Shown here piece by piece: positions 46,125 to 58,580 of a stretch of DNA of 64,000 nt; position 1 is the stretch's first letter; every line of letters begins with the position of its first letter. This DNA is from Fibrobacter succinogenes (GTDB lineage: Bacteria; Fibrobacterota; Fibrobacteria; Fibrobacterales; Fibrobacteraceae): NCBI RefSeq assembly GCF_902779965.1, contig NZ_CACZDK010000008.1, forward strand, positions 62,001 through 126,000, in the 5' to 3' direction. Under the pieces are notes generated by a model, which had not been told where the DNA came from, searched no databases, and saw only the letters and a list, made by a program, of their open reading frames with translations. A program made the translations under genes and the position numbers.

Positions 46125-47087
46125 CTAAATAATATAATACCACTCGTCACTTTGCGTGAATTCGGTGGTCTTGTGCTTTTTGCTGTCGGTAGTGGTGTAG
46201 TCGAGTTCTAAATTCTTGATGCTTACGCGAGTGTTGGCGTCAATGGAGCGCGTAATGAAAGCGTTGCCACCGATAACTGCATTTTCGCCGACAACAGTAT
46301 CGCCGCCGAGAATGGATGCTCCAGCGTAAATGGTGACGTTGTCCTGAATTGTCGGGTGGCGTTTTTTGCCGGAAAGTCTTTGGCCGCCTCTTGTCGAGAG
46401 CGCGCCTAGCGTTACGCCCTGATAAATCTTTACGTTTTTACCGATGATTGCAGTTTCGCCAATCACGATGCCGGTACCGTGATCGATAAAGAAATACTTG
46501 CCGATGGTTGCGCCCGGGTGGATGTCGATGCCCGTTTTGGAATGGGCGTATTCGGTCATGAGTCGTGGGAGAACTGGTACGTGCAAAAGGTAGAGCTCAT
46601 GGGCTATGCGGTAGATGGTTGTTGCCATGAGGCCGGGGTAGGCGAGGATGATTTCGTCAAGGCAGCCGGCAGCAGGGTCGCCGTCGTAGGCGGCGTGTAA
46701 ATCGGTTTCCAAAAATTCACGGACTTGCGGAATCTTGGAGAAAAATTCCTTACAAATTCTATAGCTTTCGATTTTGCGTTCGTCAGAAGCCATAGTGCCA
46801 CGAAGTTTACAGTAATCCAAGGCGATGGCCACCTGTTTGTGGAGGTGGTAGAAGGTATCTTCGATAAGAACCGCGAAACTGTTTTTCGGGTTGTAAATCT
46901 TATGCGAACGATCCCTGAAGTGCCCTGGATAAACGACTCGGATCAAATTCTGCAAAATCGTCTGGATTTCGGCCTGGTCGGGTCGATTGTAGATGTCGAT
47001 GTTATCGATATGCTTGCCGCGATTGTAATCATCGAAAATAGTTTGTACGGCTTTTGCAACTTCAGATTCTTGGATAAGTTCGTGCAT
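46125..47087 (-). CDS. cysE: Serine O-acetyltransferase (EpsC type)
   Basis: Makes O-acetylserine, the acceptor for cysteine synthesis. The 320-residue protein has a long helical N-terminus and a left-handed beta-helix with hexapeptide repeats: GIDIHPGATIGKYFFIDHGTGIVIGETAIIGKNVKIYQGVTLGA, containing the catalytic His and the HGTG motif, and later GASILGGDTVVGENAVIGGNAF. The length and N-terminus match EpsC-type rather than the shorter E. coli CysE. It lies directly downstream of the encapsulin cargo gene; serine acetyltransferase is a common neighbour of family 2A encapsulins. No cysK is in the window. Confidence 0.94.
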   Translation of the reverse strand: MHELIQESEVAKAVQTIFDDYNRGKHIDNIDIYNRPDQAEIQTILQNLIRVVYPGHFRDRSHKIYNPKNSFAVLIEDTFYHLHKQVAIALDYCKLRGTMASDERKIESYRICKEFFSKIPQVREFLETDLHAAYDGDPAAGCLDEIILAYPGLMATTIYRIAHELYLLHVPVLPRLMTEYAHSKTGIDIHPGATIGKYFFIDHGTGIVIGETAIIGKNVKIYQGVTLGALSTRGGQRLSGKKRHPTIQDNVTIYAGASILGGDTVVGENAVIGGNAFITRSIDANTRVSIKNLELDYTTTDSKKHKTTEFTQSDEWYYII

Positions 47088-47187: not shown

Positions 47188-48930
47188 TCACGCGAATGTC
47201 TTCAACGCTCTTACGAGTGCATCGATGTCGTCGGGCGAGTTGTACAATGCGAGAGTGGGTCGCACGGTACTTTCGTATCCGAAATGGCGTAAGACAGGTT
47301 GTGCGCAGTGATGCCCGGTGCGGACGGCGATGCCGTAAGCGTCGAGTCTCTTGCCCACTTCTTCGTCGGAGTATCCGTCGAGCTTGAAGGCTAGCGCAGA
47401 TGCCTTGTTGAGTGCGGTTCCTACAAGGTGGATTCCCTTGACGGTCTTCAGTTCCTTGAGGCCATACTGCAACAATTCATGTTCCCATCTGAATACGCAG
47501 GGCATTCCGATTTCGGAGAGGTACTTGAGGGCTTCGCCAAGGCCAACAGCGTCGGCGATGCTTCCGGTACCGGCTTCAAACTTGTTCGGAATTCCGTTGT
47601 AGATGGTGCGTTCGAAGGTCACGTCGGCAATCATGTTGCCACCGCCATGGTAGGGGCGGGCTGCTTCCAGCAATTCCTTCTTGCCGTAAACGACACCGAT
47701 ACCTGTCGGAGCGAACACCTTGTGTCCTGAGAACACGAAGAAGTCTGCATCGAGGGCGGAAACATTTACCGGAATGTGCGCAATAGACTGTGCACCGTCA
47801 ATGAGGATTCTCACGCCGTGTCTATGAGCGATGGCGATCAATTCTTCAATCGGGGTGACTGTACCGAGAACGTTCGAAACGTGTGTGACGGAAACGAACT
47901 TGGTTCTCTTTGTAAAGAGAGCTTCGTAGTCGTGGAGCTTGAGCTGACCCGTAGAATCGCACGGAATCACCTTGATCACGGCACCCGTTTCTTCGGCAAT
48001 GAGCTGCCAAGGAACGATGTTGGCGTGGTGTTCCAAAATGGAGACGATGATTTCATCGCCCGGCTGGAGTGTCGGCTTTACGTAGGCGTTTGCAACCAAG
48101 TTAATGGCTTCGGTGGTACCGCGGACGAAAACGATTTCTTGTGCAGACGGAGCGCCGATAAAGTCACGGACAATGCCGCGGGCGTTCTCGTAAGCATCCG
48201 TCGAAGCGGCGGCAAGCGTGTGCGCACCACGGTGGACGTTCGAGTTTTCATTTTCGTAGTAGTACTTGAGGCGGTCAATGACCTGCTGCGGTCTCTGCGT
48301 CGTAGCACCGTTATCGAGCCAAACCAGCGGATGACCGTTGATCTGCTTCGAAAGAATCGGGAAGTCGGCACGGATCTGGGCAAGCGTCTTGGAACCGATG
48401 CGGATCGATTCGTTTCTGGAATTTGCGCCAGAATTTGCAGAGTTGCCCTTAGCAGAATCGCCACCGAGCGAAGTCGGAGCGTCCACCTTGCGGTCTTGCT
48501 GAGCGGCCTGAGTCTTGGAAACGACTTTCGGAGAGTATCCGTTAGCCGGGGCTTGCGTTACAGAAATATCGCCCTGCTGCGGCAAAAACTGCGCTTCAGG
48601 TGCTGCAGGGGCTTCAACGGTGTTGAGCCAAGTGTCTGTAGCGTTTCCGCCGTAGGTAAACGGTGCCGAGGTCACTGGCTGATCGCCGTAAGTCGCAAAC
48701 GGATGTTCCCAGTCAAAGGCTGGAGATTGGTTGATGGCAGCGGCACCCTGAGCGGCACTTACGCCCTGTGCAGCAGAAGCATTCTGTGCTTCGGGTGCTG
48801 CTGTGGGGGCGGCATAAGCGCTATCTGTCAAATCAGGGAAATATGCGTTAGCCAATTGCTCCAGTTCAGCCGCATTGGGAACTCCGGCGAGTTCTTCCAG
48901 CGATCTGGTTTCTGGATTATTCGTAATCAT
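47188..48930 (-). CDS. Encapsulin-cargo cysteine desulfurase with long disordered N-terminus
   Basis: The C-terminal 400 residues are a SufS-type (class II) cysteine desulfurase: PLP-binding Lys about 403 in SGHKVFAPTGIG and catalytic Cys about 542 in RTGHHCAQP. It releases sulfur from cysteine as a persulfide. The first 185 residues are Ala/Pro/Gln/Asn-rich and low-complexity, with a hydrophobic motif AELEQLANAYFPDL near 21-34. This is the layout of family 2A encapsulin cargo, where the N-terminal domain directs loading into the shell. ATG at 48930 is preferred over TTG at 48942. The start overlaps the shell gene by 14 bp. Confidence 0.93.
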   Translation of the reverse strand: MITNNPETRSLEELAGVPNAAELEQLANAYFPDLTDSAYAAPTAAPEAQNASAAQGVSAAQGAAAINQSPAFDWEHPFATYGDQPVTSAPFTYGGNATDTWLNTVEAPAAPEAQFLPQQGDISVTQAPANGYSPKVVSKTQAAQQDRKVDAPTSLGGDSAKGNSANSGANSRNESIRIGSKTLAQIRADFPILSKQINGHPLVWLDNGATTQRPQQVIDRLKYYYENENSNVHRGAHTLAAASTDAYENARGIVRDFIGAPSAQEIVFVRGTTEAINLVANAYVKPTLQPGDEIIVSILEHHANIVPWQLIAEETGAVIKVIPCDSTGQLKLHDYEALFTKRTKFVSVTHVSNVLGTVTPIEELIAIAHRHGVRILIDGAQSIAHIPVNVSALDADFFVFSGHKVFAPTGIGVVYGKKELLEAARPYHGGGNMIADVTFERTIYNGIPNKFEAGTGSIADAVGLGEALKYLSEIGMPCVFRWEHELLQYGLKELKTVKGIHLVGTALNKASALAFKLDGYSDEEVGKRLDAYGIAVRTGHHCAQPVLRHFGYESTVRPTLALYNSPDDIDALVRALKTFA

Positions 48931-49879
48931 AGTATTCGCCAACCTCTACGTCTTCAAGGACTGCGATTGCGTCGTCGGAAAGGATTGCTGCAGAGCAGTA
49001 GAGAGAAAGGAGGTAAGAAGCGACACCCTTGTTGTCGATACCGCGGAAACGCACAGAAAGGCCGCGAGAGTGTTCGTTCTTGAGACCAGCCTGGAAGAGA
49101 CCGATCACGCCGCGTTTGGCTTCGCCAGTACGGATGAGCAAGATGTTGGTCTTGCCACCCTTGGACTTCGGTTCCTTCACACCGTCAACGAGGAGCTTGT
49201 TGGTCGGGATGAGAGGAATGCCGCGCCAGGTGAGGAACTTGCCACCGGCGATATCTACGACGACAGGCGGCACGCCACGGCGGGTGCATTCGCGTTCGAA
49301 TGCTGCGATAGCACGCGGGTGAGCGAGGAAGAAGGACGGTTCCTTCCAAACCTTCGTGATGAGTTCGTCGAGATCGTCCGGTGTGGGGCGGCCATCGGCG
49401 CGGATTGGCTGGATGCGCTGGGAGTCAGTAATGTTCTTCAAGAGACCGTAGTCATCGTTGTTGATGAGCTGGCTTTCCTGACGTTCGCGGAGAGATTCGA
49501 TAGCGAGACCGAGCTGTTCCTGAACCTGATCATACGGGGAACTGTAAACGTCTTCGATGGCGGTGTTGACGTTGATGATCGTGGAAATGGAGTTGAGCTT
49601 GTATTCACGCGGTTCGGTTTCGTATTCGACGTAGCCTTCCGGGATGATATCAGACTTCTTGGTGGCGCTGCAGAGAACGTCGAGCGGTGTCTGGCCTTCG
49701 ACTACCTTGTTCACGCGGAAAAGACCGGTTTCCAGGCCCTTGAATTCAAGGAACTTGGTGAGCCACTTCGGAGTGAGAGACGCAAATTGCGGCTTGGTCT
49801 TGGTGACGTTAGCAAGGTTATAGGCAGCCTTTGCGCCAAGCGCGTTGATGCCGACATTCTTTTCTGTTTCATTTGCCAT
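48917..49879 (-). CDS. Family 2A encapsulin shell protein (SrpI-like)
   Basis: This HK97-fold protein self-assembles into a nanocompartment. Sequence blocks match SrpI / major membrane protein I: NATKT-type ANVTKTKPQFASLTPKWL, VDYETSPREY-type VEYETEPREYKLNSISTI, DVYSSPYDQVQEQL, ELINNDDYGLL-type INNDDYGLLKNI, PTPDDLDELITKVWKEPSFFL, TWRGIPLIPTNKL and GVIGLFQAGLKNEHSRGLSVRF. Its 320 residues equal the family length. No cyclic-nucleotide-binding insertion is present, which separates 2A from 2B. The next gene is its desulfurase cargo. GAGAGG lies 9 bp before the ATG. Family 2A shells have been linked to sulfur storage. Confidence 0.95.
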   Translation of the reverse strand: MANETEKNVGINALGAKAAYNLANVTKTKPQFASLTPKWLTKFLEFKGLETGLFRVNKVVEGQTPLDVLCSATKKSDIIPEGYVEYETEPREYKLNSISTIINVNTAIEDVYSSPYDQVQEQLGLAIESLRERQESQLINNDDYGLLKNITDSQRIQPIRADGRPTPDDLDELITKVWKEPSFFLAHPRAIAAFERECTRRGVPPVVVDIAGGKFLTWRGIPLIPTNKLLVDGVKEPKSKGGKTNILLIRTGEAKRGVIGLFQAGLKNEHSRGLSVRFRGIDNKGVASYLLSLYCSAAILSDDAIAVLEDVEVGEYYDYE

Positions 49880-50009: not shown

Positions 50010-51476
50010 TTAGAGCCATGCACCTTCGTGAGTAAACATGATGTCTTTCATGGCGTCAATGCCACCTTTCAGGTTGTAAAGCGGACCCGTGTAACCCGCT
50101 TCGCGCAAGGTGTTGATGGCGAGCTCGCTACGCTTGCCTTGCTTGCAGACAAAGACGGTGTCCTTGTTCGGGTCGAGTTCCTTGATTCTACGGACAAGTT
50201 GTCCGATCGGGATGACTATGGCGTTCGGGAAGCGGAGAATCGCGCGTTCATGCGGTTCACGCACGTCGATGATTGTCATCGGATCGCCATTGTCAATTTT
50301 CTTGGCGAGTTCTTCTGGAGAGAATCCTTCCACCGGAACTTCATCCTTTGTCTTCAATCCGCAAAGGTCTTCGTAGTCGATTTCTTCGACGTCGGTAATC
50401 GTCGGGTTATTTCCGCAAATCGGGCAGTTGCAATTTCTTTCGACTTTGAGGATTCTTGAAGACAAATTCAAACTGTCGATGTGCAATAGCTTTCCGTTCA
50501 GGTGTTCGCCGATTCCCAAAATCAGCTTGAGCGCTTCGTTAGCCTGGATGCTGCCCACGATTCCCGGGAGCGGGCTGATGGCACCGCCTTCGGCACAAGA
50601 GGGGATGAGCCCTGACGGGGGTGGCGACGGGTATTGGCAACGGTAGCAAGGACCGCCATCCAAATTGAATACGCCGACTTGGCCTTCGAACTGGTAAATC
50701 GCGCCGAATACAACTGGAACGCCATGCAATGCGCAAGCGTCGTTGATCAAGTAACGGGCCTTATAATTGTCCGTGCAATCGACAACCAAATCGTAACCTT
50801 CGATTTGTTCCCAAATGTTAGATGCCTTGAGTTCTTCTTTTTCGGCGATAAAGTCGATGTTCTTGTTGATGTTCTTGACTTTGTCCCTAGCAGATGCGAC
50901 TTTGGGACGCTTGAGGTCGCGTGTGCCGTGAATAACTTGGCTCTGCAAGTTTTCCAGCGAGACTTCATCAAAATCGATGACCTTGATGGTTCCAACGCCT
51001 GCAGCTGCGAGGTACTGAATGACGGGCGAGCCTAACGCACCAGCACCTACGACAACAACTTTTGCAGCCTTGATGCGCTTTTGCCCTTTGACGCCAATGT
51101 CGCGGAGCATCAAGTGCTTTCCGAAACGTTCAATTTCGGAATCGTCGAACGAAACGGCCTTGCGTTTTTCGTCCGAAATCAAGCTCTCGACGGGGGCGTC
51201 GGTCGGAGCGCCGCCAGCAATGGCGGGCAAAAGCAAAATTTCTGTTTCTTCTGGAAGGGCGGTGTCCCAAATGGTTTCAACGGTCAATTTCTTGTTGTTG
51301 ACGTAAATTTGGATGAAGTCCCTGACCTTTTTATTGTCGTCGTAAAGAACTTTTTCGCCTTCCGGGTAAGTACTGATTAAGTATGCGAGAGCCTTCCTGA
51401 CGGTATCGACAGGGGCTTCTACTTGGGAGTTCTTCCCAAAGAAATTCCTGAGTGTTGCTGATATATAAACTTTCAC
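50010..51476 (-). CDS. MoaD-like sulfur carrier / E1-like adenylyltransferase / rhodanese fusion
   Basis: Three modules. Residues 1-89 are a ubiquitin-like MoaD/ThiS carrier whose tail LLLPAIAGG (Gly88-Gly89) is internal rather than C-terminal. Residues about 105-350 are a ThiF/MoeB-type E1 with VVVGAGALGSPVIQYLAAAG, DFDEVSLENLQSQVIH and zinc pairs CYRC and CPIC. Residues about 385-488 are a rhodanese with VFVCKQGKRS. MoeZ proteins have the last two modules; here the carrier is fused too. GTG at 51476 is chosen because GGAGA lies 7 bp upstream. Promoter box 2 precedes it. A JAMM protease gene lies upstream (51812). Confidence 0.9.
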   Translation of the reverse strand: MKVYISATLRNFFGKNSQVEAPVDTVRKALAYLISTYPEGEKVLYDDNKKVRDFIQIYVNNKKLTVETIWDTALPEETEILLLPAIAGGAPTDAPVESLISDEKRKAVSFDDSEIERFGKHLMLRDIGVKGQKRIKAAKVVVVGAGALGSPVIQYLAAAGVGTIKVIDFDEVSLENLQSQVIHGTRDLKRPKVASARDKVKNINKNIDFIAEKEELKASNIWEQIEGYDLVVDCTDNYKARYLINDACALHGVPVVFGAIYQFEGQVGVFNLDGGPCYRCQYPSPPPSGLIPSCAEGGAISPLPGIVGSIQANEALKLILGIGEHLNGKLLHIDSLNLSSRILKVERNCNCPICGNNPTITDVEEIDYEDLCGLKTKDEVPVEGFSPEELAKKIDNGDPMTIIDVREPHERAILRFPNAIVIPIGQLVRRIKELDPNKDTVFVCKQGKRSELAINTLREAGYTGPLYNLKGGIDAMKDIMFTHEGAWL

Positions 51477-51562
51477 TTTTTTTTCTCCGTACAATAAAAA
51501 GTGTTAAAATCGTTTATTCCGTACAAAATTTCCCACAAAACTTGTAGGATTTTTCGAAGCAA

Positions 51563-51618
51563 AATATAGAACGCAAAAATGTGTTTGTCCAATACTTATT
51601 TTTTATGTAGAGGTATTG
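51563..51618 (-). promoter_or_regulatory. Sulfur-region promoter box, copy 2 (carrier-E1-rhodanese gene)
   Basis: -10 TATATT (51563-51568), 18-bp spacer, -35 TTGGAC (51587-51592). The upstream half is the most diverged of the five copies (TACTTATTTTTTATG and TATTG on the plus strand), but spacing is preserved. Confidence 0.75.
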
Positions 51619-51811
51619 ATTTATTCTATAATTAAGGCGGTAAATTCGCTTAAAAATATGGAAAGAGGCGTACTCGGAACAGTTTTTCTCGACTTGTCAT
51701 CCTCGCGTATTTTTATTCAAGGATGCCCACCTCCGTGGGCGTGCCGAGCTTGATGTGTTGGCTTTCATTCCGGCCTCCGAGCCAGAATCACCGTACACGG
51801 TTTACTTTGAA
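51619..51811. other. Intergenic remainder with repeat fragments
   Basis: This is the non-promoter part of a 335-bp gap. It holds CTTGTCATCCTCGCG (GGATGAC family) and a hairpin GCCCAC-CTCC-GTGGGC at 51725-51740 downstream of the JAMM gene, which could weakly terminate it. No gene is visible. Confidence 0.4.
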
Positions 51812-52204
51812 CTAGACTCTATCTCGCGTATAGCTTTTCACATCCACCACGCCATGGGCGGTTACGGACATGATGGTGTAAACGAGTCCCGGCACCATAT
51901 ATTTGCGGTCTTCATCCGAAAGGATGGCTTTGCAATCCGGGTGAGAGTGGTAAAAACCAACGATTTCAAGATTGCTGCTTTCGAGTTCGCGTTCGATGTA
52001 GTAAAGATTTAGTGGGTCGATGCGGAAATGGGTAGCTTCTTGTCCGCCTTGAATCTGGTTAGAAGCTTCGCGGATTTCGGTCACTTCGATTTCGCCTTTT
52101 TCGGACTTTTTTCCAACCAAAATGCCGCAGCATTCGCACGGGTACGCTTTTTTTGCTGCGGATTCCATTTGTGTTGAAACTATTTTACTAAATTTGGGTT
52201 CCAT
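51812..52204 (-). CDS. JAMM-type metalloprotease (Mec/HcyD-like), paralogue 2
   Basis: A JAB1/MPN+ zinc peptidase of 130 residues. The JAMM signature is complete: Glu24 in CECCGILVG, then His86-x-His88 in VGFYHSHPD, seven residues, Ser96 and Asp99 (SDED). Family members cut after the C-terminal Gly of ubiquitin-like sulfur carriers. The start is set at MEPKFSKI, 8 bp after AGGAGA. It sits between the hcy-type operon and the carrier-E1-rhodanese fusion, so it may process the fusion at its internal GG or remove an adduct from it. An upstream GC-rich near-palindrome is at 52236-52262. Confidence 0.87.
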   Translation of the reverse strand: MEPKFSKIVSTQMESAAKKAYPCECCGILVGKKSEKGEIEVTEIREASNQIQGGQEATHFRIDPLNLYYIERELESSNLEIVGFYHSHPDCKAILSDEDRKYMVPGLVYTIMSVTAHGVVDVKSYTRDRV

Positions 52205-52316: not shown

Positions 52317-52727
52317 TTACTTTATCACCAAACCTTCGTTCGTGGCGTTTACGCCTTCGATGTGGAAGGAATTGAGCACCGGATTTGCACGGTCCATGAG
52401 CGAAAGGATCAAGTAGCTTGCTTTGCTGTCGAAAGCGAGGCGCTTGTCTTCGTCCGAGGGGCGAGATGGCGATTCTGGATGGGAATGCCAGTTGCCGAGC
52501 GGGGAAAGACCGTTCTGTCGCATGTCCTTGATGGCGGCAAGGTGTTCCTTGGGATCCAGCGAAAAGTGTTCGTTGGAATGGTCGATATTGGTGAGCAAAT
52601 AAACCTTTTCGATATGCTTGTTTTCGCCATCGATGCGCCCTGCAATCAGCCCGCAAGCTTCTTCGGGCAGGTTCTTCTGGGCATGCTCCAGGATTTTTTC
52701 GTAGTTTTCTTTAGATAAGGTAATCAC
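52317..52727 (-). CDS. hcyD: JAMM-type metalloprotease HcyD-like, paralogue 1
   Basis: The complete JAMM motif is seen: Glu22/23 in PEEACGLIAG, His81-x-His83 in GNWHSHPESPSRPSDED, Ser91 and Asp94. In the Wolinella thiocarboxylate pathway HcyD removes the cap from HcyS and later releases homocysteine from the carrier. The operon order metY-tusA-carrier-E1-JAMM makes this the likely role here. The start is GTG at 52727 with AAGGAA 6 bp upstream. A 160-bp repeat block separates it from the E1 gene. Confidence 0.87.
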   Translation of the reverse strand: MITLSKENYEKILEHAQKNLPEEACGLIAGRIDGENKHIEKVYLLTNIDHSNEHFSLDPKEHLAAIKDMRQNGLSPLGNWHSHPESPSRPSDEDKRLAFDSKASYLILSLMDRANPVLNSFHIEGVNATNEGLVIK

Positions 52728-52887: not shown

Positions 52888-53697
52888 CTAATGCTTCAAG
52901 TCGCACACAGCTTGTTCGTAGTCGATCAGATGGTCAATCTTCGGGTGGGTGCCGCAAACCGCGCAATCGTCCGTCTTGGTTGGGAGCTTGATTTTGCGGA
53001 ATTCCATCGTGAGCGCATTGTAGGTGAGCAAGTAGCCCGTGAGCAAATTGCCGACACCGAGAATGTATTTGACGGCTTCCATGGCCTGGAGGCTGCCGAT
53101 TACACCGCCCATAGCGCCAATAACGCCTGCTTGCTTACAGGTCGGCACGGCATCTTTCGGAGGGGGTTCCTTGAAGACGCAGCGGTAGCAGGGGCCCTGG
53201 CCCGGAACGTACGTCATGAGCTGACCTTGGAAGCGGATAATGCCCGCGTGAGAGAACGGCTTTTTGGCCATGACGCATGCATCGTTGATGAGGAACTTAG
53301 CCGGGAAATTATCGGTTCCATCGATGATGAAATCGTAATCCTTGATGAGGTCCATGATGTTTTCGCTGGTGACGAAGGTGTGGTACGTAATCACCTTCAC
53401 ATCCGGGTTCATGGCTTCCATCGTTTCCTTGGCGGACTGCACTTTGGGCTTGCCCACATCCTTTGTGGCGTGGATAATCTGGCGCTGCAAATTGGAGAGG
53501 TCAACGACATCGGCATCAGCAATACCAATCGTGCCAACACCTGCTGCGGCGAGGTACATGGCGACTGGAGCACCGAGGCCACCGGCGCCGATGACGAGCA
53601 CCTTGGCGTTCAAAAGCTTCTTCTGGCCTTTTGCGCCGACTTCCTTGAGGATGATGTGGCGGGAATAGCGTTCGAGTTGTTCGTTAGTAAAAGCCAT
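52888..53697 (-). CDS. hcyF: E1-like sulfur-carrier adenylyltransferase (HcyF/ThiF-MoeB type)
   Basis: This enzyme activates the C-terminal Gly of the small carrier by adenylation before sulfur transfer. The Rossmann motif is VIGAGGLGAPVAMYLAAAG, followed by DADVVDLSNLQRQIIH and the zinc pairs CYRC (with VFKEPPP) and CAVC near the C-terminus. Its 269 residues match the single-domain ThiF/MoeB form, without rhodanese. The ATG overlaps the carrier's TAA, and the carrier's terminal Gly codons GGAGGTGG provide the ribosome site. Confidence 0.92.
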   Translation of the reverse strand: MAFTNEQLERYSRHIILKEVGAKGQKKLLNAKVLVIGAGGLGAPVAMYLAAAGVGTIGIADADVVDLSNLQRQIIHATKDVGKPKVQSAKETMEAMNPDVKVITYHTFVTSENIMDLIKDYDFIIDGTDNFPAKFLINDACVMAKKPFSHAGIIRFQGQLMTYVPGQGPCYRCVFKEPPPKDAVPTCKQAGVIGAMGGVIGSLQAMEAVKYILGVGNLLTGYLLTYNALTMEFRKIKLPTKTDDCAVCGTHPKIDHLIDYEQAVCDLKH

Positions 53698-53903
53698 TAC
53701 TGACCACCTCCCATGAAGTAGAGGAATTCGACGTTGTCGCCGTCTTTGAGAGCGGTTGTTTCAAAATTGGTGTTTTCGACAAATTCGTCGTTGAGCGAAA
53801 CGGTCACGTATTGCGGCGTTTCCACCTTTTCTTGTTCAATGAGTTGAGCAACGGTGATACCGTCATTATATTCTTTCTTGTTTCCAGCTACGGTAATAAT
53901 CAT
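53697..53903 (-). CDS. hcyS: Ubiquitin-like sulfur carrier with capped C-terminus (HcyS/ThiS-like)
   Basis: A 68-residue beta-grasp protein. Active ThiS and MoaD carriers end in Gly-Gly; this one ends FMGGGQ, so a terminal Gln must be removed before adenylation. That matches HcyS, which requires cleavage by the JAMM protease HcyD. The neighbours hcyF, hcyD, tusA and metY complete the set. Alternative: a thiazole-pathway ThiS, but no thiG or thiH is nearby. Confidence 0.88.
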   Translation of the reverse strand: MIITVAGNKKEYNDGITVAQLIEQEKVETPQYVTVSLNDEFVENTNFETTALKDGDNVEFLYFMGGGQ

Positions 53904-53944: not shown

Positions 53945-54196
53945 TTAGTCCCCGACTTTTTTCACGATCAGCGTGAATGTTCCGTCCTGATTGTCGTTAA
54001 GCTTCAGGATCTCGTGGCCTTCTTCCTTGAGGCTGCGCGGCACATTCTGCACCGGTTCGCCGTCGTTGAGGCGCACTGCGAGAATCTGGCCGTCGTCGAG
54101 CTCTTCGAGGGCGACTTTAGCCTTCACGAATGTGGTCGGGCATTTGACGTCAGTGACGTCAACGGTATCATCGATTTTAAATTCTTGTTCTGCCAT
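53945..54196 (-). CDS. tusA: TusA-family sulfurtransferase
   Basis: An 83-residue SirA/TusA-like protein. The active Cys19 lies in VDVTDVKCPTTFVKAKVALEEL, where the family consensus is CP.P. The second Pro is replaced by Phe in CPTTF, but the helix that follows is conserved. It likely relays persulfide sulfur to the carrier or takes sulfide from sulfite reductase. It lies between metY2 and the carrier gene, 27 and 41 bp away. Confidence 0.88.
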   Translation of the reverse strand: MAEQEFKIDDTVDVTDVKCPTTFVKAKVALEELDDGQILAVRLNDGEPVQNVPRSLKEEGHEILKLNDNQDGTFTLIVKKVGD

Positions 54197-55707: not shown

Positions 55708-56574
55708 TTAAGGGGTGTTGTTGTAAGCGTCCTTGATTTTTTGTGCAAAAACATCATGACCAATGCGGTCGATGGTGAATTTGAAGCGCTCGCCCGGATT
55801 TGCATTTTCGGCAAAGAACGAAATGGCTGCATCGCAAATTTCAAGAAGCTTGTGCTTGTCTTCTACGAACGGAATGATGGTTTCGCCCTTGTTGATGGAA
55901 TTGCCGAAAAGACCGCCGAACGAAATGATGTAGCCATGCGTTGCTTCCCAAGCGTCCGTGGGGCAGGACTTGTAGCAGCGACCGCAATAGTTGCACTTGG
56001 ATTCATCAAAGATGACCTTTTTGTTTTCGATACGGATGGCGCTTCTGCGGCAGGCTTTAGCGCAAACGCCACAGCCGATGCAGGCACTTTCGAGCCATTT
56101 CACCTTGATTGCGCCCTTGATGCCCACGTCGTTTTCTTCGGCTTTGAGGCAGTTGTTTTGGCAACCGGTCACGCCGAATTTAAACTTGTGCGGGAGTTCA
56201 CGAGCGAAGTAGCGGTCGTCCAGTTCTTTTGCGATAGCGTAAGTGTCGATACAGCCGCTCGGGCAAACCGCTTCGCCTTGGCAAGCCGTAATCGTTCTGA
56301 CGCGGGGGCCGCAAACGCCCGGTTCTACGCCACCTTCGGCGAGGGCGTTCTTCACATCGTCAACGTTTTCAAGCTTGATGAACGGAATTTCGACACTCTG
56401 TCTCGATGTCAAGTGAGCGTAGCCTTCGCCATATTTCTCGGCGACTTCGGCAATTTTTGCAAGTTGTTTTGCGGTAAGGTTTCCGCCAACGACGCGTACG
56501 CGCAGCGAGAAGTTGTTCTTCTGCTTTTGGCGCATCCAGCCGCCTTTTTTAAGTGTTGCGTAATCTGCTGCCAT
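55708..56574 (-). CDS. Single-subunit anaerobic sulfite reductase (siroheme and ferredoxin domains)
   Basis: This enzyme reduces sulfite to sulfide. The siroheme/[4Fe-4S] signature is present as C-x5-C (ACQGEAVCPSG) and C-x3-C (GCQNNC). It encloses two ferredoxin-type clusters, CIGCGVCAKACRRSA and CNYCGRCYKSCPTDA, inserted before the C-terminal half-domain. At 288 residues it is much smaller than NADPH-dependent CysI and resembles AsrC or clostridial low-molecular-weight reductases that use ferredoxin. Nitrite as a substrate cannot be excluded. The sulfate uptake genes upstream and its promoter box 4 support sulfite. No APS or PAPS reductase lies within the window. Confidence 0.9.
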   Translation of the reverse strand: MAADYATLKKGGWMRQKQKNNFSLRVRVVGGNLTAKQLAKIAEVAEKYGEGYAHLTSRQSVEIPFIKLENVDDVKNALAEGGVEPGVCGPRVRTITACQGEAVCPSGCIDTYAIAKELDDRYFARELPHKFKFGVTGCQNNCLKAEENDVGIKGAIKVKWLESACIGCGVCAKACRRSAIRIENKKVIFDESKCNYCGRCYKSCPTDAWEATHGYIISFGGLFGNSINKGETIIPFVEDKHKLLEICDAAISFFAENANPGERFKFTIDRIGHDVFAQKIKDAYNNTP

Positions 56575-56603
56575 GTTTTAGACTCTCCATAGTTGTGGGG
56601 ACA

Positions 56604-56659
56604 AATATAGAACGCGCTTTTGTACTCGTCCAATATTTAATTTTTATCACGATTGATAG
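56604..56659 (-). promoter_or_regulatory. Sulfur-region promoter box, copy 4 (sulfite reductase)
   Basis: -10 TATATT (56604-56609), 18-bp spacer, -35 TTGGAC (56628-56633), upstream block ending CTATC at 56659. The ATG is 30 bp from the -10. It lies only 21 bp after the cysA stop. Confidence 0.85.
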
Positions 56660-56679
56660 TAGAACTTTATCTGTAATTG

Positions 56680-57738
56680 TTAAATCACGACAACAGGATC
56701 TCGGAGCGATTTGTTCTCGAGCAAATAGGCGTTGTCACCTGCGGTTACGAAAATGCGATAGACGAATACATCGACTTTTTCACCAACAGAAACGCTCGGC
56801 TCGTCAAAGCTACGCCTTGCTGTAAGTGTTTCTCCATTTACTGCAACGGTCAATTCGATGCCGCTTCCGCGGAAGGCAACATCGGTTACGACGCCTTCTT
56901 GGGCGGATTTTCCGTATTTTTGTGATTCGTTTTTCTTGGTGACCTTGACAAATTCAGGACGTACGATTGCTTGTTCTGCACCTTCGATTTCATCAAAGCT
57001 ATTGAACTTGCTGTAGTCCTTGAAAATAGAGGGTTGCCCAAAAAATGAGGCTACAAAGGAGGTCTTTGGAGTGCTGTACACATCAAGCGGTTTCCCGATT
57101 TGATCAATGCGGCCCTTGTTCATGATGATGATTTCGTCAGCGACTTCGATGGCTTCGTCTTGGTCGTGGGTGACGAAAATGCTCGTGACGCCCAGCTTGG
57201 CTATCATTTCTTTAAGCCAATGGCGGAGTTCCTGACGCACCTTGGCGTCAATGGCGGCAAATGGTTCATCGAGCAAAAGCAATTGCGGGTTTGGCGCAAG
57301 CGCACGTGCAAAAGCGACACGCTGCCTCTGGCCGCCCGAAAGCTGGCTCGGATAGCGGCCTTCAAGACCTTCAAGGCCAATCAGCTTGACGAGTTCTGCG
57401 ACGCGTTCTTTGATTTCGTTCTCGGATTTTTTGAGGACGCGAAGCCCAAAAGCGATATTTTCGAAAACGGTCATGTAGCGGAACAAGGCGTAGCTCTGGA
57501 ATACAAATCCGATGCCGCGCTTGCTTGCCGGAACGTTGTTGATGACTTTCCCGTCAATGATGATGTCGCCGTTGTCAGGTGTTTCGAGCCCCGCAATCAT
57601 GCGGAGAATCGTTGTCTTGCCGCTACCGCTTGGGCCCAACAGGCCTATGAGCTTACCCTTTTCGATACCGAAGGATACATCGTCTGAGGCCTTGAAATTT
57701 CCAAAATGCTTGTTGATATGTTTCAGTTCTACGTACAT
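56680..57738 (-). CDS. cysA: Sulfate/thiosulfate ABC transporter ATP-binding protein
   Basis: ATPase of the CysTWA importer, on the cytoplasmic face. Walker A is GPSGSGKTT, the signature is SQLSGGQRQRVAFARAL, Walker B is LLLDEPFAAIDAKVR and the switch His is in VTHDQDEAIEVADE. The C-terminal 110 residues (from about 245) form the regulatory beta domain seen in CysA and PotA. Length 352 is normal. AGGAGA precedes the ATG. It is third in cysT-cysW-cysA, 8 bp after cysW. Confidence 0.95.
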   Translation of the reverse strand: MYVELKHINKHFGNFKASDDVSFGIEKGKLIGLLGPSGSGKTTILRMIAGLETPDNGDIIIDGKVINNVPASKRGIGFVFQSYALFRYMTVFENIAFGLRVLKKSENEIKERVAELVKLIGLEGLEGRYPSQLSGGQRQRVAFARALAPNPQLLLLDEPFAAIDAKVRQELRHWLKEMIAKLGVTSIFVTHDQDEAIEVADEIIIMNKGRIDQIGKPLDVYSTPKTSFVASFFGQPSIFKDYSKFNSFDEIEGAEQAIVRPEFVKVTKKNESQKYGKSAQEGVVTDVAFRGSGIELTVAVNGETLTARRSFDEPSVSVGEKVDVFVYRIFVTAGDNAYLLENKSLRDPVVVI

Positions 57739-57746
57739 AAAATCTC

Positions 57747-58580
57747 CTAAGGCGAAACCTTACCCTTCTTTTTCCCGTTGTATTCAATAAGACTTCTTGC
57801 AATCAAGATGAGGATGGCGAGCATAACGAGAATTGATGCCACAGCAAACGCAGGCACGTACTGAAATTCGTTGAAGAGAATTTCCACATGCAAGGGGAGG
57901 GTGTTCGTTTTTCCGCGCAGGTGCCCGGAGATGACCGAAACGGCACCGAATTCACCCATGGCGCGGGCTGCACAAAGCACTACGCCGTACAAAAAAGCCC
58001 ATTTGATATGCGGGAAAGTAATCTTGCGGAAAATCGTCCAGCCCTTCGCTCCCATCAGCGCTGCGGCCTCTTCTTCGTCGTTTCCGCGGGCTTCGAGCAC
58101 GGGAATCAGCTCGCGCGAAATGAACGGGAAGGTCACGAAAATCGTTGCCAATACAATTCCTGGAACCGCAAATACAATCTTGATGTCCCAATTTTGCAGC
58201 AGCGGGAATAGCGGGCTTTGGCGTCCGAATGTGAGCAAGAAAATGAGACCTGCGATAATTGGCGAAACGGTCACCGGCAAGTCAATCAGTGTCGTAAGCA
58301 CCTTCTTGCCTTTGAACTGGAATTTCGTGAGCGACCACGCTGCACTCAATCCGAAAACCGTGTTGATGAGCACGGCGAGCAGCGTCGCTTCTAGCGTGAG
58401 CCAAATCGCCTTGACGGTGTAATTGTCGGTTACCGCTTTTTCGTAAACGGCAAAACCTTGCTTGAATGCTTCTGTAATCACCGTAATCAGCGGGAGCAAA
58501 AGCATTAGCACCACGAAAATGATGCTGATACTGATTAAAGTCCACTTGACGACTTTTGAGGATGTTGTCTCTTTATTCAT
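57747..58580 (-). CDS. cysW: Sulfate ABC transporter permease CysW
   Basis: Inner-membrane permease with about six segments in 277 residues. The ABC-permease loop that contacts CysA is AAALMGAKGWTIFRKITFPHIKWA. FGAVSVISGHLRGKTNTLPLHVEILFNEFQ is characteristic of CysW. The ATG overlaps the cysT stop region (TTAATGA), with GGGAGG supplying the ribosome site. It pairs with CysT as the membrane channel. Confidence 0.95.
   Translation of the reverse strand: MNKETTSSKVVKWTLISISIIFVVLMLLLPLITVITEAFKQGFAVYEKAVTDNYTVKAIWLTLEATLLAVLINTVFGLSAAWSLTKFQFKGKKVLTTLIDLPVTVSPIIAGLIFLLTFGRQSPLFPLLQNWDIKIVFAVPGIVLATIFVTFPFISRELIPVLEARGNDEEEAAALMGAKGWTIFRKITFPHIKWAFLYGVVLCAARAMGEFGAVSVISGHLRGKTNTLPLHVEILFNEFQYVPAFAVASILVMLAILILIARSLIEYNGKKKGKVSP

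What the first reader, a model, noticed from the sequence alone, without database searches (positions are those of the whole stretch)
50010..52204. MoaD-E1-rhodanese fusion with an internal Gly-Gly, paired with a second JAMM protease
The carrier module's GG (residues 88-89) is buried inside a 488-residue chain, where it cannot be adenylated unless the chain is cut. A second JAMM protease gene lies upstream. This suggests a self-contained carrier system matured by proteolysis, or a carrier module that has become structural. It has its own sulfur-type promoter, separate from the hcy operon.
Basis: partly seen in the sequence, partly recalled or inferred. Interest (0 to 1): 0.78.

Follow-up and report, generated by a model that had tools for sequence, protein, structure and literature searches.

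The report
Sulfur carrier fused to its activator
A gut bacterium makes a small sulfur-carrying protein locked inside the very enzyme that must load it, next to a protease that most probably cuts it free; the same pairing occurs in several phyla, usually beside genes for a protein-shelled sulfur compartment and for making cysteine.

Summary
Window 50010-51476 (-) encodes a 488-aa MoaD/CysO-like carrier + ThiF-type E1 + rhodanese chain with Gly88-Gly89 internal; an intact JAMM protease gene (51812-52204) lies upstream, distinct from the hcy-operon JAMM. The genome is Fibrobacter-like. GG is kept in 63/63 fused relatives found. A JAMM gene lies within 400 bp upstream in 54 of 59 that can be judged. 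In split relatives the free carrier nearly always ends in a short tail after GG (GGK, GGI, GGQV...), and those tails go with an adjacent JAMM; five carriers ending exactly in GG have none adjacent. Fused and split forms interchange several times on the tree. So the E1-rhodanese behaves as an oversized C-terminal cap. The cluster (cysteine synthase or OAH sulfhydrylase, JAMM, fusion, family-2A encapsulin, cysteine desulfurase, CysE) points to thiocarboxylate-dependent cysteine synthesis. Each element has precedent: JAMM cleavage of MoaD-MoaE, capped carriers, MoaD-MoeBR fusions, CysO-CysM-Mec+. The combination is a new variant of a known kind. Cleavage itself is inferred, not shown.

The parts
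50010..51476 (-). MoaD/CysO-like carrier - ThiF/MoeB-type E1 - rhodanese fusion, 488 aa, GTG start
   Evidence: ORF and SD; Pfam ThiS+ThiF+Rhodanese; structure model matches MoeB (1jw9, Z 34) and Uba4 (6yub)
51210..51476 (-). carrier (MoaD/CysO-like beta-grasp) domain, residues 1-89, ending LLLPAIAGG
   Evidence: Pfam ThiS, NCBIfam SAMP1/moaD_arch matches ending at residue 89
51210..51215 (-). Gly88-Gly89, predicted JAMM cleavage after Gly89 (GG|AP)
   Evidence: invariant in 47 aligned fusions, 63/63; AlphaFold pLDDT <50 at residues 87-95
51153..51209 (-). flexible linker, residues 90-108, starting Ala-Pro
   Evidence: low model confidence; length varies 8-29 residues between relatives, but the first two residues are A/S/V/T-P in most of the window's clade
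50379..51152 (-). E1 (adenylyltransferase) domain with GxGxxG, PSCxEGG cysteine and CxxC pairs
50049..50321 (-). rhodanese domain with active-site loop CKQGKRS
   Evidence: Pfam PF00581; C444, G447, R449, S450 invariant
51812..52204 (-). second JAMM/MPN+ protease (JAMM2), 130 aa; predicted processing and releasing protease for the fusion
   Evidence: PF14464, PF01398; PDB JAMM relatives; a JAMM gene is adjacent to the fusion in 54/59 fused loci
51563..51592 (-). promoter of the fusion: ATTGGACA-N17-TATATT
   Evidence: kept in 17 of 18 Fibrobacter genomes; single-sequence scan alone is not significant
51531..51549 (-). palindrome TCCTACAAGTTTTGTGGGA, possible operator
   Evidence: kept in 6 of 18 Fibrobacter genomes; once in the window, 0.14 expected
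48917..49879 (-). family-2A encapsulin shell protein
   Evidence: NF041162 476.6 bits, cut-off 380; PF19307
47188..48942 (-). SufS-like cysteine desulfurase with long N-terminal extension, encapsulin cargo
   Evidence: best match NF041166 encapsulin cargo, 759 bits, just below cut-off 800; sufS above cut-off
46125..47087 (-). serine O-acetyltransferase (CysE/EpsC-like)
   Evidence: NF041874 154.4 bits, cut-off 150
52317..52727 (-). JAMM1 of the hcy operon (HcyD-like)
   Evidence: PF14464
52888..53697 (-). stand-alone E1 of the hcy operon
   Evidence: PF00899
53697..53903 (-). HcyS-like carrier ending GGGQ, i.e. capped after GG
   Evidence: ThiS family
53945..54196 (-). TusA
   Evidence: PF01206
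54224..55450 (-). O-acetylhomoserine/O-acetylserine sulfhydrylase family PLP enzyme of the hcy operon
   Evidence: PF01053; TIGR01326 below cut-off

Best explanation
The protein is a precursor. JAMM2 cuts after Gly89 and releases an 89-residue CysO/MoaD-like sulfur carrier from the E1-rhodanese. The freed carrier is then adenylated at Gly89 by that same E1 and turned into a thiocarboxylate with persulfide sulfur from the rhodanese domain, whose likely donor is the desulfurase in the neighbouring family-2A encapsulin. The thiocarboxylate gives its sulfur to an O-acetylserine-type acceptor made by CysE, through a cysteine synthase or OAH/OAS sulfhydrylase, forming carrier-cysteine; JAMM2, like mycobacterial Mec+, probably also hydrolyses that bond and regenerates the carrier. 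In this view the E1-rhodanese is an oversized form of the short C-terminal caps found on the split carriers of the same family. Shown here: architecture, conservation, linkage, tree. Inferred: the cut, the sulfur source, the product cysteine.
For: GG kept in 63/63 fused homologues from Fibrobacterota, Spirochaetota, Bacillota, Planctomycetota, Pseudomonadota, Campylobacterota and Thermoplasmatota; G88/G89 are among four invariant residues of the carrier domain. JAMM gene within 400 bp upstream in 54/59 fused and 14/15 split loci with enough upstream DNA, often overlapping by 3-4 bp or abutting; in three genomes whose fusion has no JAMM beside it or in sight, a JAMM lies elsewhere, beside the dedicated cysteine synthase. 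Split carriers linked to a JAMM have tails after GG in 15/15; five carriers that end exactly in GG (L109, G008, three plasmid YcaO clusters) have no adjacent JAMM. Fused/split state changes at least 3 times on well-supported branches, and in close relatives the tail is the start of the E1 gene read in another frame. AlphaFold confidence is lowest at residues 87-95, consistent with an exposed bond. No MoaE in the genome; in some relatives the fused domain is the only ThiS-family domain found. JAMM-linked cysteine synthases form their own clade of 24. JAMM cleavage of MoaD-MoaE after GG is shown in Deinococcus (PMC8832034) and cutting is needed for MoaX in Mycobacterium (PMC4326299); capped carriers need a JAMM (PMC6006322).
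Against: No direct proof of cleavage. Two incomplete MAGs with the fusion (G024, G168) show no JAMM at all. The window's genome lacks a member of the JAMM-linked cysteine-synthase clade; its CysK belongs to the generic clade, so the acceptor enzyme here is unknown. In Fibrobacter, JAMM1 and JAMM2 come and go with the whole cluster, so co-occurrence in that genus is not specific to JAMM2. The counts are not corrected for shared ancestry.
Confidence: 0.75

Rival explanations
1. The carrier domain stays attached and is structural or regulatory: it docks on the E1 as a pseudo-substrate, and another free carrier does the sulfur transfer.
For: The chain is continuous and no cleavage is shown. Some ThiF proteins carry an N-terminal Ub-like domain of a different family beside a separate ThiS (PMC1779556). 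HcyS and a thiamin-type ThiS exist in the genome.
Against: A structural domain has no reason to keep Gly-Gly in 63/63 relatives while nearly all other positions vary; split and fused forms interchange; in at least four relatives the fused domain is the only ThiS-family domain found (G168, G173, G174, G176; these are draft genomes).
Confidence: 0.1
2. JAMM2 acts only late, like Mec+ on CysO-cysteine, and the fusion is opened by another protease.
For: Mec+ hydrolyses CysO-cysteine (PMC3227635); the protease that cuts MoaX was unidentified (PMC4326299).
Against: The tail/JAMM association ties the JAMM to the maturation step; JAMMs are shown to cut MoaD-MoaE (PMC8832034) and an archaeal ubiquitin precursor after GG (PMC6043591).
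Confidence: 0.1
3. The system is a SAMP/Urm1-like protein modifier, with JAMM2 as deconjugase.
For: The curated models nearest to JAMM2 and to the carrier domain are desampylase and SAMP1; Uba4 has the same E1-rhodanese layout.
Against: Gene neighbours are sulfur and cysteine enzymes in nearly all loci; the curated cut-offs of desampylase and SAMP1 are not reached. Dual use is not excluded.
Confidence: 0.05
4. The GG is only a relic of a recent fusion between adjacent genes, without selection.
For: Fused and split forms differ by small frame changes in close relatives.
Against: The fused clade that holds the window's protein is deep (45 rows over several phyla, mostly 58-72% identical to the window outside Fibrobacter) and still has GG in every member.
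Confidence: 0.02

Closest known systems
MoaD-MoeBR (MoaD-E1-rhodanese) fusions in Archaea and some bacteria (PMC11237513)
   Same: Same domain order; catalogued as fusion clusters 356.1-356.3
   Different: Treated there as molybdopterin genes; the text read gives no JAMM link, no cleavage proposal for this fusion and no cysteine/encapsulin context; the window's genome has no MoaE
MoaX / DR2607 MoaD-MoaE fusion cut by a protease or JAMM (PMC4326299, PMC8832034)
   Same: Internal GG of a carrier freed by cutting after the second Gly; JAMM shown for Deinococcus
   Different: The partner there is the sulfur acceptor enzyme MoaE; here it is the activating enzyme plus sulfurtransferase
CysO-CysM-Mec+-MoeZ cysteine pathway of Mycobacterium (PMC3227635)
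   Same: Carrier, E1-rhodanese, JAMM and cysteine synthase as functional set
   Different: CysO is a separate protein with a C-terminal GG; no encapsulin; here carrier and E1 are one chain and no dedicated cysteine synthase is in the window
Capped sulfur carriers with JAMM (QbsD substrate; PtmS2/PtmS1; PMC6006322)
   Same: Residues after GG must be removed by a JAMM before activation
   Different: Caps there are one or two residues; here the cap is a 399-residue enzyme
Operon types 4b-4e of Iyer et al. 2006 (PMC1779556)
   Same: ThiS/MoaD + E1-rhodanese + JAB, with or without cysteine synthase; the paper predicted that JAB frees ThiS/MoaD fused to other proteins
   Different: This fusion and the encapsulin linkage are not described in the passages that I read
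Family-2A encapsulin / cysteine desulfurase operons (PMC8346489)
   Same: Shell, desulfurase cargo, serine acetyltransferase; rhodaneses enriched
   Different: The text of that paper has no MoaD, ThiF or thiocarboxylate; here the rhodanese is part of a carrier-E1 chain with a JAMM

Membership tests
JAMM/MPN+ metalloproteases (window 51812-52204) | Prok-JAB/JAB profile and E...HxH...S..D metal motif | tested here: met
   sequence ECCG...YHSHPDCKAILSDED; relatives
JAMM/MPN+ metalloproteases (window 51812-52204) | Zn-dependent cleavage after a carrier's GG | not testable with these tools
   needs an assay
MoeZ/MoeBR/Uba4-type E1-rhodanese | E1 core with nucleotide loop, catalytic Cys, CxxC pairs, then rhodanese with active Cys | tested here: met
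MoeZ/MoeBR/Uba4-type E1-rhodanese | score over the curated MoeZ model cut-off | tested here: not met
   370 against 647 bits; it works like MoeZ but is not filed as MoeZ
CysO/MoaD/SAMP sulfur carriers | beta-grasp domain ending in Gly-Gly | tested here: met
   GG present but internal
CysO/MoaD/SAMP sulfur carriers | free C-terminal glycine that forms a thiocarboxylate | not testable with these tools
   requires cutting and mass spectrometry
CysO-CysM-Mec+ cysteine pathway | dedicated cysteine synthase linked to the carrier and JAMM | tested here: inconclusive
   met in about 25 of the relatives' loci and in Aliarcobacter; no such clade member found in the window's genome
Family-2A encapsulin system | 2A shell protein next to a SufS-like cysteine desulfurase with long N-terminal extension | tested here: met
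   shell over cut-off; cargo model 759 of 800 bits, gene overlaps the shell gene
Molybdopterin MoaD/MoeB | partner MoaE in the genome | tested here: not met
   no MoaE found, control genomes ring

The most novel reading that the evidence does not exclude
The uncut fusion is a zymogen: the tethered carrier locks its own E1, and JAMM2 cutting is the on-switch that lets the cell draw sulfur from the encapsulin-linked desulfurase into cysteine, with carrier and E1 always made one to one and the same protease both starting the cycle and releasing the product.
Probability: 0.2. Interest if true: 0.7.

Novelty: new variant of a known kind. Interest (0 to 1): 0.55.

Why it matters
It gives a precise, testable case for the 2006 prediction that JAB/JAMM proteases free carriers fused to other proteins, and it places a complete carrier-activation-release module beside family-2A encapsulins, whose downstream use of sulfur is not settled. 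If true, ubiquitin-precursor-like processing is routine in sulfur assimilation of many rumen and termite-gut bacteria.

Tried and rejected
(1) Natural experiment on HcyS: Fibrobacter genomes with an hcy-like E1 but no JAMM were thought to hold uncapped HcyS; their E1 sits in another context without any HcyS, so the test was void. (2) A first cysteine-synthase tree used wrong frames for the own genome and was discarded; redone. (3) An RBS hairpin (CACTTTT...AAAAGTG) upstream of the fusion gave no consensus structure. (4) The 'sulfur-type' promoter: no evidence for sulfur control. (5) Moco function rejected for lack of MoaE. (6) Rows marked NOGG were a fault of the search pattern; all hold GG. 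(8) No geometry test of loading in cis: model coordinates are not exposed by the tools.

Full report
What is there. The minus strand of 46-55.5 kb carries one sulfur cluster, read 5' to 3': OAH/OAS sulfhydrylase family enzyme, TusA, HcyS-like carrier (ends GGGQ), stand-alone E1, JAMM1, JAMM2, the carrier-E1-rhodanese fusion, family-2A encapsulin shell, SufS-like desulfurase cargo and a serine O-acetyltransferase. The fusion is 488 aa from a GTG start behind GGAG; Gly88-Gly89 end the carrier domain (...LLLPAIAGG) and are followed by Ala-Pro and a linker. E1 and rhodanese active residues are present. The structure model puts the E1 on MoeB (Z 34) and Uba4 and has very low confidence at residues 87-95, as expected for an exposed, flexible cutting site. 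JAMM2 has the full metal motif. The genome is Fibrobacter-like: named Fibrobacter loci are the nearest rows of the fusion and of the hcy E1.

Conservation. A scan of 84,980 species genomes with the carrier-to-E1 junction as query gave 80 loci: 63 fused and 17 split. GG is present in all 63 fused and, by inspection, in all 17 split. In 47 full-length fusions the only invariant carrier residues are Leu9, Pro84, Gly88 and Gly89. In the window's group (47 sequences) the residue after GG is Ala, Ser, Val or Thr and the next is Pro in 41, although the linker behind them varies in length; in the other group (16) the residue after GG is Ser, Cys, Gly or Arg.

JAMM linkage. Of 59 fused loci with enough upstream sequence, 54 have a JAMM gene within 400 bp upstream, many of them overlapping or within tens of bases. 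One exception (L083) has a JAMM1-type gene about 40 bp downstream. In G027, G072 and G073 the JAMM lies elsewhere beside the cysteine synthase, in two cases also with CysE. Only two incomplete genomes (G024, G168) show none. In 30 genomes of the window's genus, all 18 with the fusion have at least two good JAMM genes; the 12 without have none except one 25-bit partial match. This last count is not specific to JAMM2, because the hcy JAMM is absent in the same genomes.

The tails. The split relatives are the key evidence. In Aliarcobacter cibarius the cluster is cysteine synthase, JAMM, [IS], carrier, E1, [IS5], rhodanese, encapsulin, desulfurase, CysE, and the free carrier ends ...SIAGGI. In 16 of 17 split loci the carrier also runs past GG: GGK, GGI, GGQV, GGCL, GGLC, GGGR, GGNNGVRTY and so on. 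Carriers that end exactly at GG are L109, G008 and three plasmid YcaO-type clusters; none has an adjacent JAMM. Fisher's exact p for 15 capped-and-linked against 5 uncapped-and-unlinked is 6e-5, not corrected for kinship. Several caps start with Cys, which would resemble the carrier-cysteine adduct that Mec+ cuts; that parallel is inference.

Fusion is reversible. On the E1-rhodanese tree the fused/split state needs four to five changes, at least three forced by well-supported branches. In termite-gut Treponema the tail NNGVRTY is the start of the E1 gene (MALEL...) read in another frame, so a small frame change would join or part the two. This fits a protein that works the same way whether joined or not, which is possible only if GG is set free. 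Some of these genomes are MAGs, so single taxonomic labels should be read with care.

Pathway. In about 25 of the 80 loci a cysteine synthase gene sits directly before the JAMM; those of this kind plus the Aliarcobacter one form a separate, well-supported clade of 24. In 23 loci an OAH-type enzyme is there instead. The window's genome has no member of that cysteine-synthase clade, so its acceptor enzyme is open: own CysK or one of two OAH/OAS enzymes in the window. CysE in the cluster argues for cysteine as product. No MoaE was found, so molybdopterin is unlikely. The desulfurase in the encapsulin is the likely sulfur source for the rhodanese; PMC8346489 notes rhodaneses and serine acetyltransferases as the most enriched accessory genes of such operons.

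Known or new. JAMM or protease cutting after GG of MoaD-MoaE fusions is established (PMC4326299; PMC8832034). Short caps on sulfur carriers removed by JAMM are established (PMC6006322), as is JAMM-family processing of an archaeal ubiquitin precursor (PMC6043591). MoaD-MoeB and MoaD-MoeB-rhodanese fusions were catalogued in 2024 (PMC11237513), without a JAMM link in the text read. Iyer et al. 2006 predicted JAB release of fused carriers and described the basic operons (PMC1779556). What I did not find described is this fusion as a JAMM substrate, the cap-to-fusion series, and the combination with family-2A encapsulins. The library holds only open-licence papers, so absence there is weak evidence. 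The names HcyS/HcyD and the Wolinella homocysteine pathway are from general knowledge (one search found no open paper).

Confidence. I hold JAMM2-dependent maturation at 0.75; the cysteine end-product at about 0.6; the encapsulin desulfurase as sulfur source at about 0.5.

Noticed in passing
window 51474-51600 and upstream of the fusion in 18 Fibrobacter genomes (L003, L009-L025): A promoter (ATTGGACA-N17-TTCTATATTT) is kept in 17 of 18 genomes; a palindrome TCCTACAANNATTGTGGGA lies between it and the gene in 6 of 18. Possible regulator site, unidentified.
   Followed up: partly
L043, L046, L047 (G036, G026, G051): Fibrobacter genomes that lack the cluster keep an hcy-type E1 beside cupin-like, methyltransferase-like and PdxS-like genes (named by sequence inspection), with no carrier or JAMM; its substrate is unknown.
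   Followed up: partly
L039 3524-7660: In the Aliarcobacter cibarius plasmid the cluster is broken by two insertion sequences, one of them cutting the E1-rhodanese gene apart.
   Followed up: no
L055-L057; window 53697-53903: HcyS-like carriers are also capped (GGGQ, GGGQR, GGGR, GGGQYGF) next to their own JAMM1.
   Followed up: partly
L080 6989-7309: The split carrier's tail repeats the junction motif (AIAGGAIAGGK), as if duplicated.
   Followed up: no
L074 229-1683: The linker after GG is a run of Gly and Asp-Ser repeats (GGGGDSDSDSDSDSK).
   Followed up: no
L083 6947-8037: A carrier-E1 fusion without rhodanese, followed about 40 bp later by a JAMM1-type gene and preceded by a cysteine synthase gene: a mixed form of the two systems.
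   Followed up: no
window 55708-58580: Upstream of the cluster lie a sulfite/nitrite reductase-like gene and ABC transporter genes of sulfate-transporter type (by sequence inspection).
   Followed up: no
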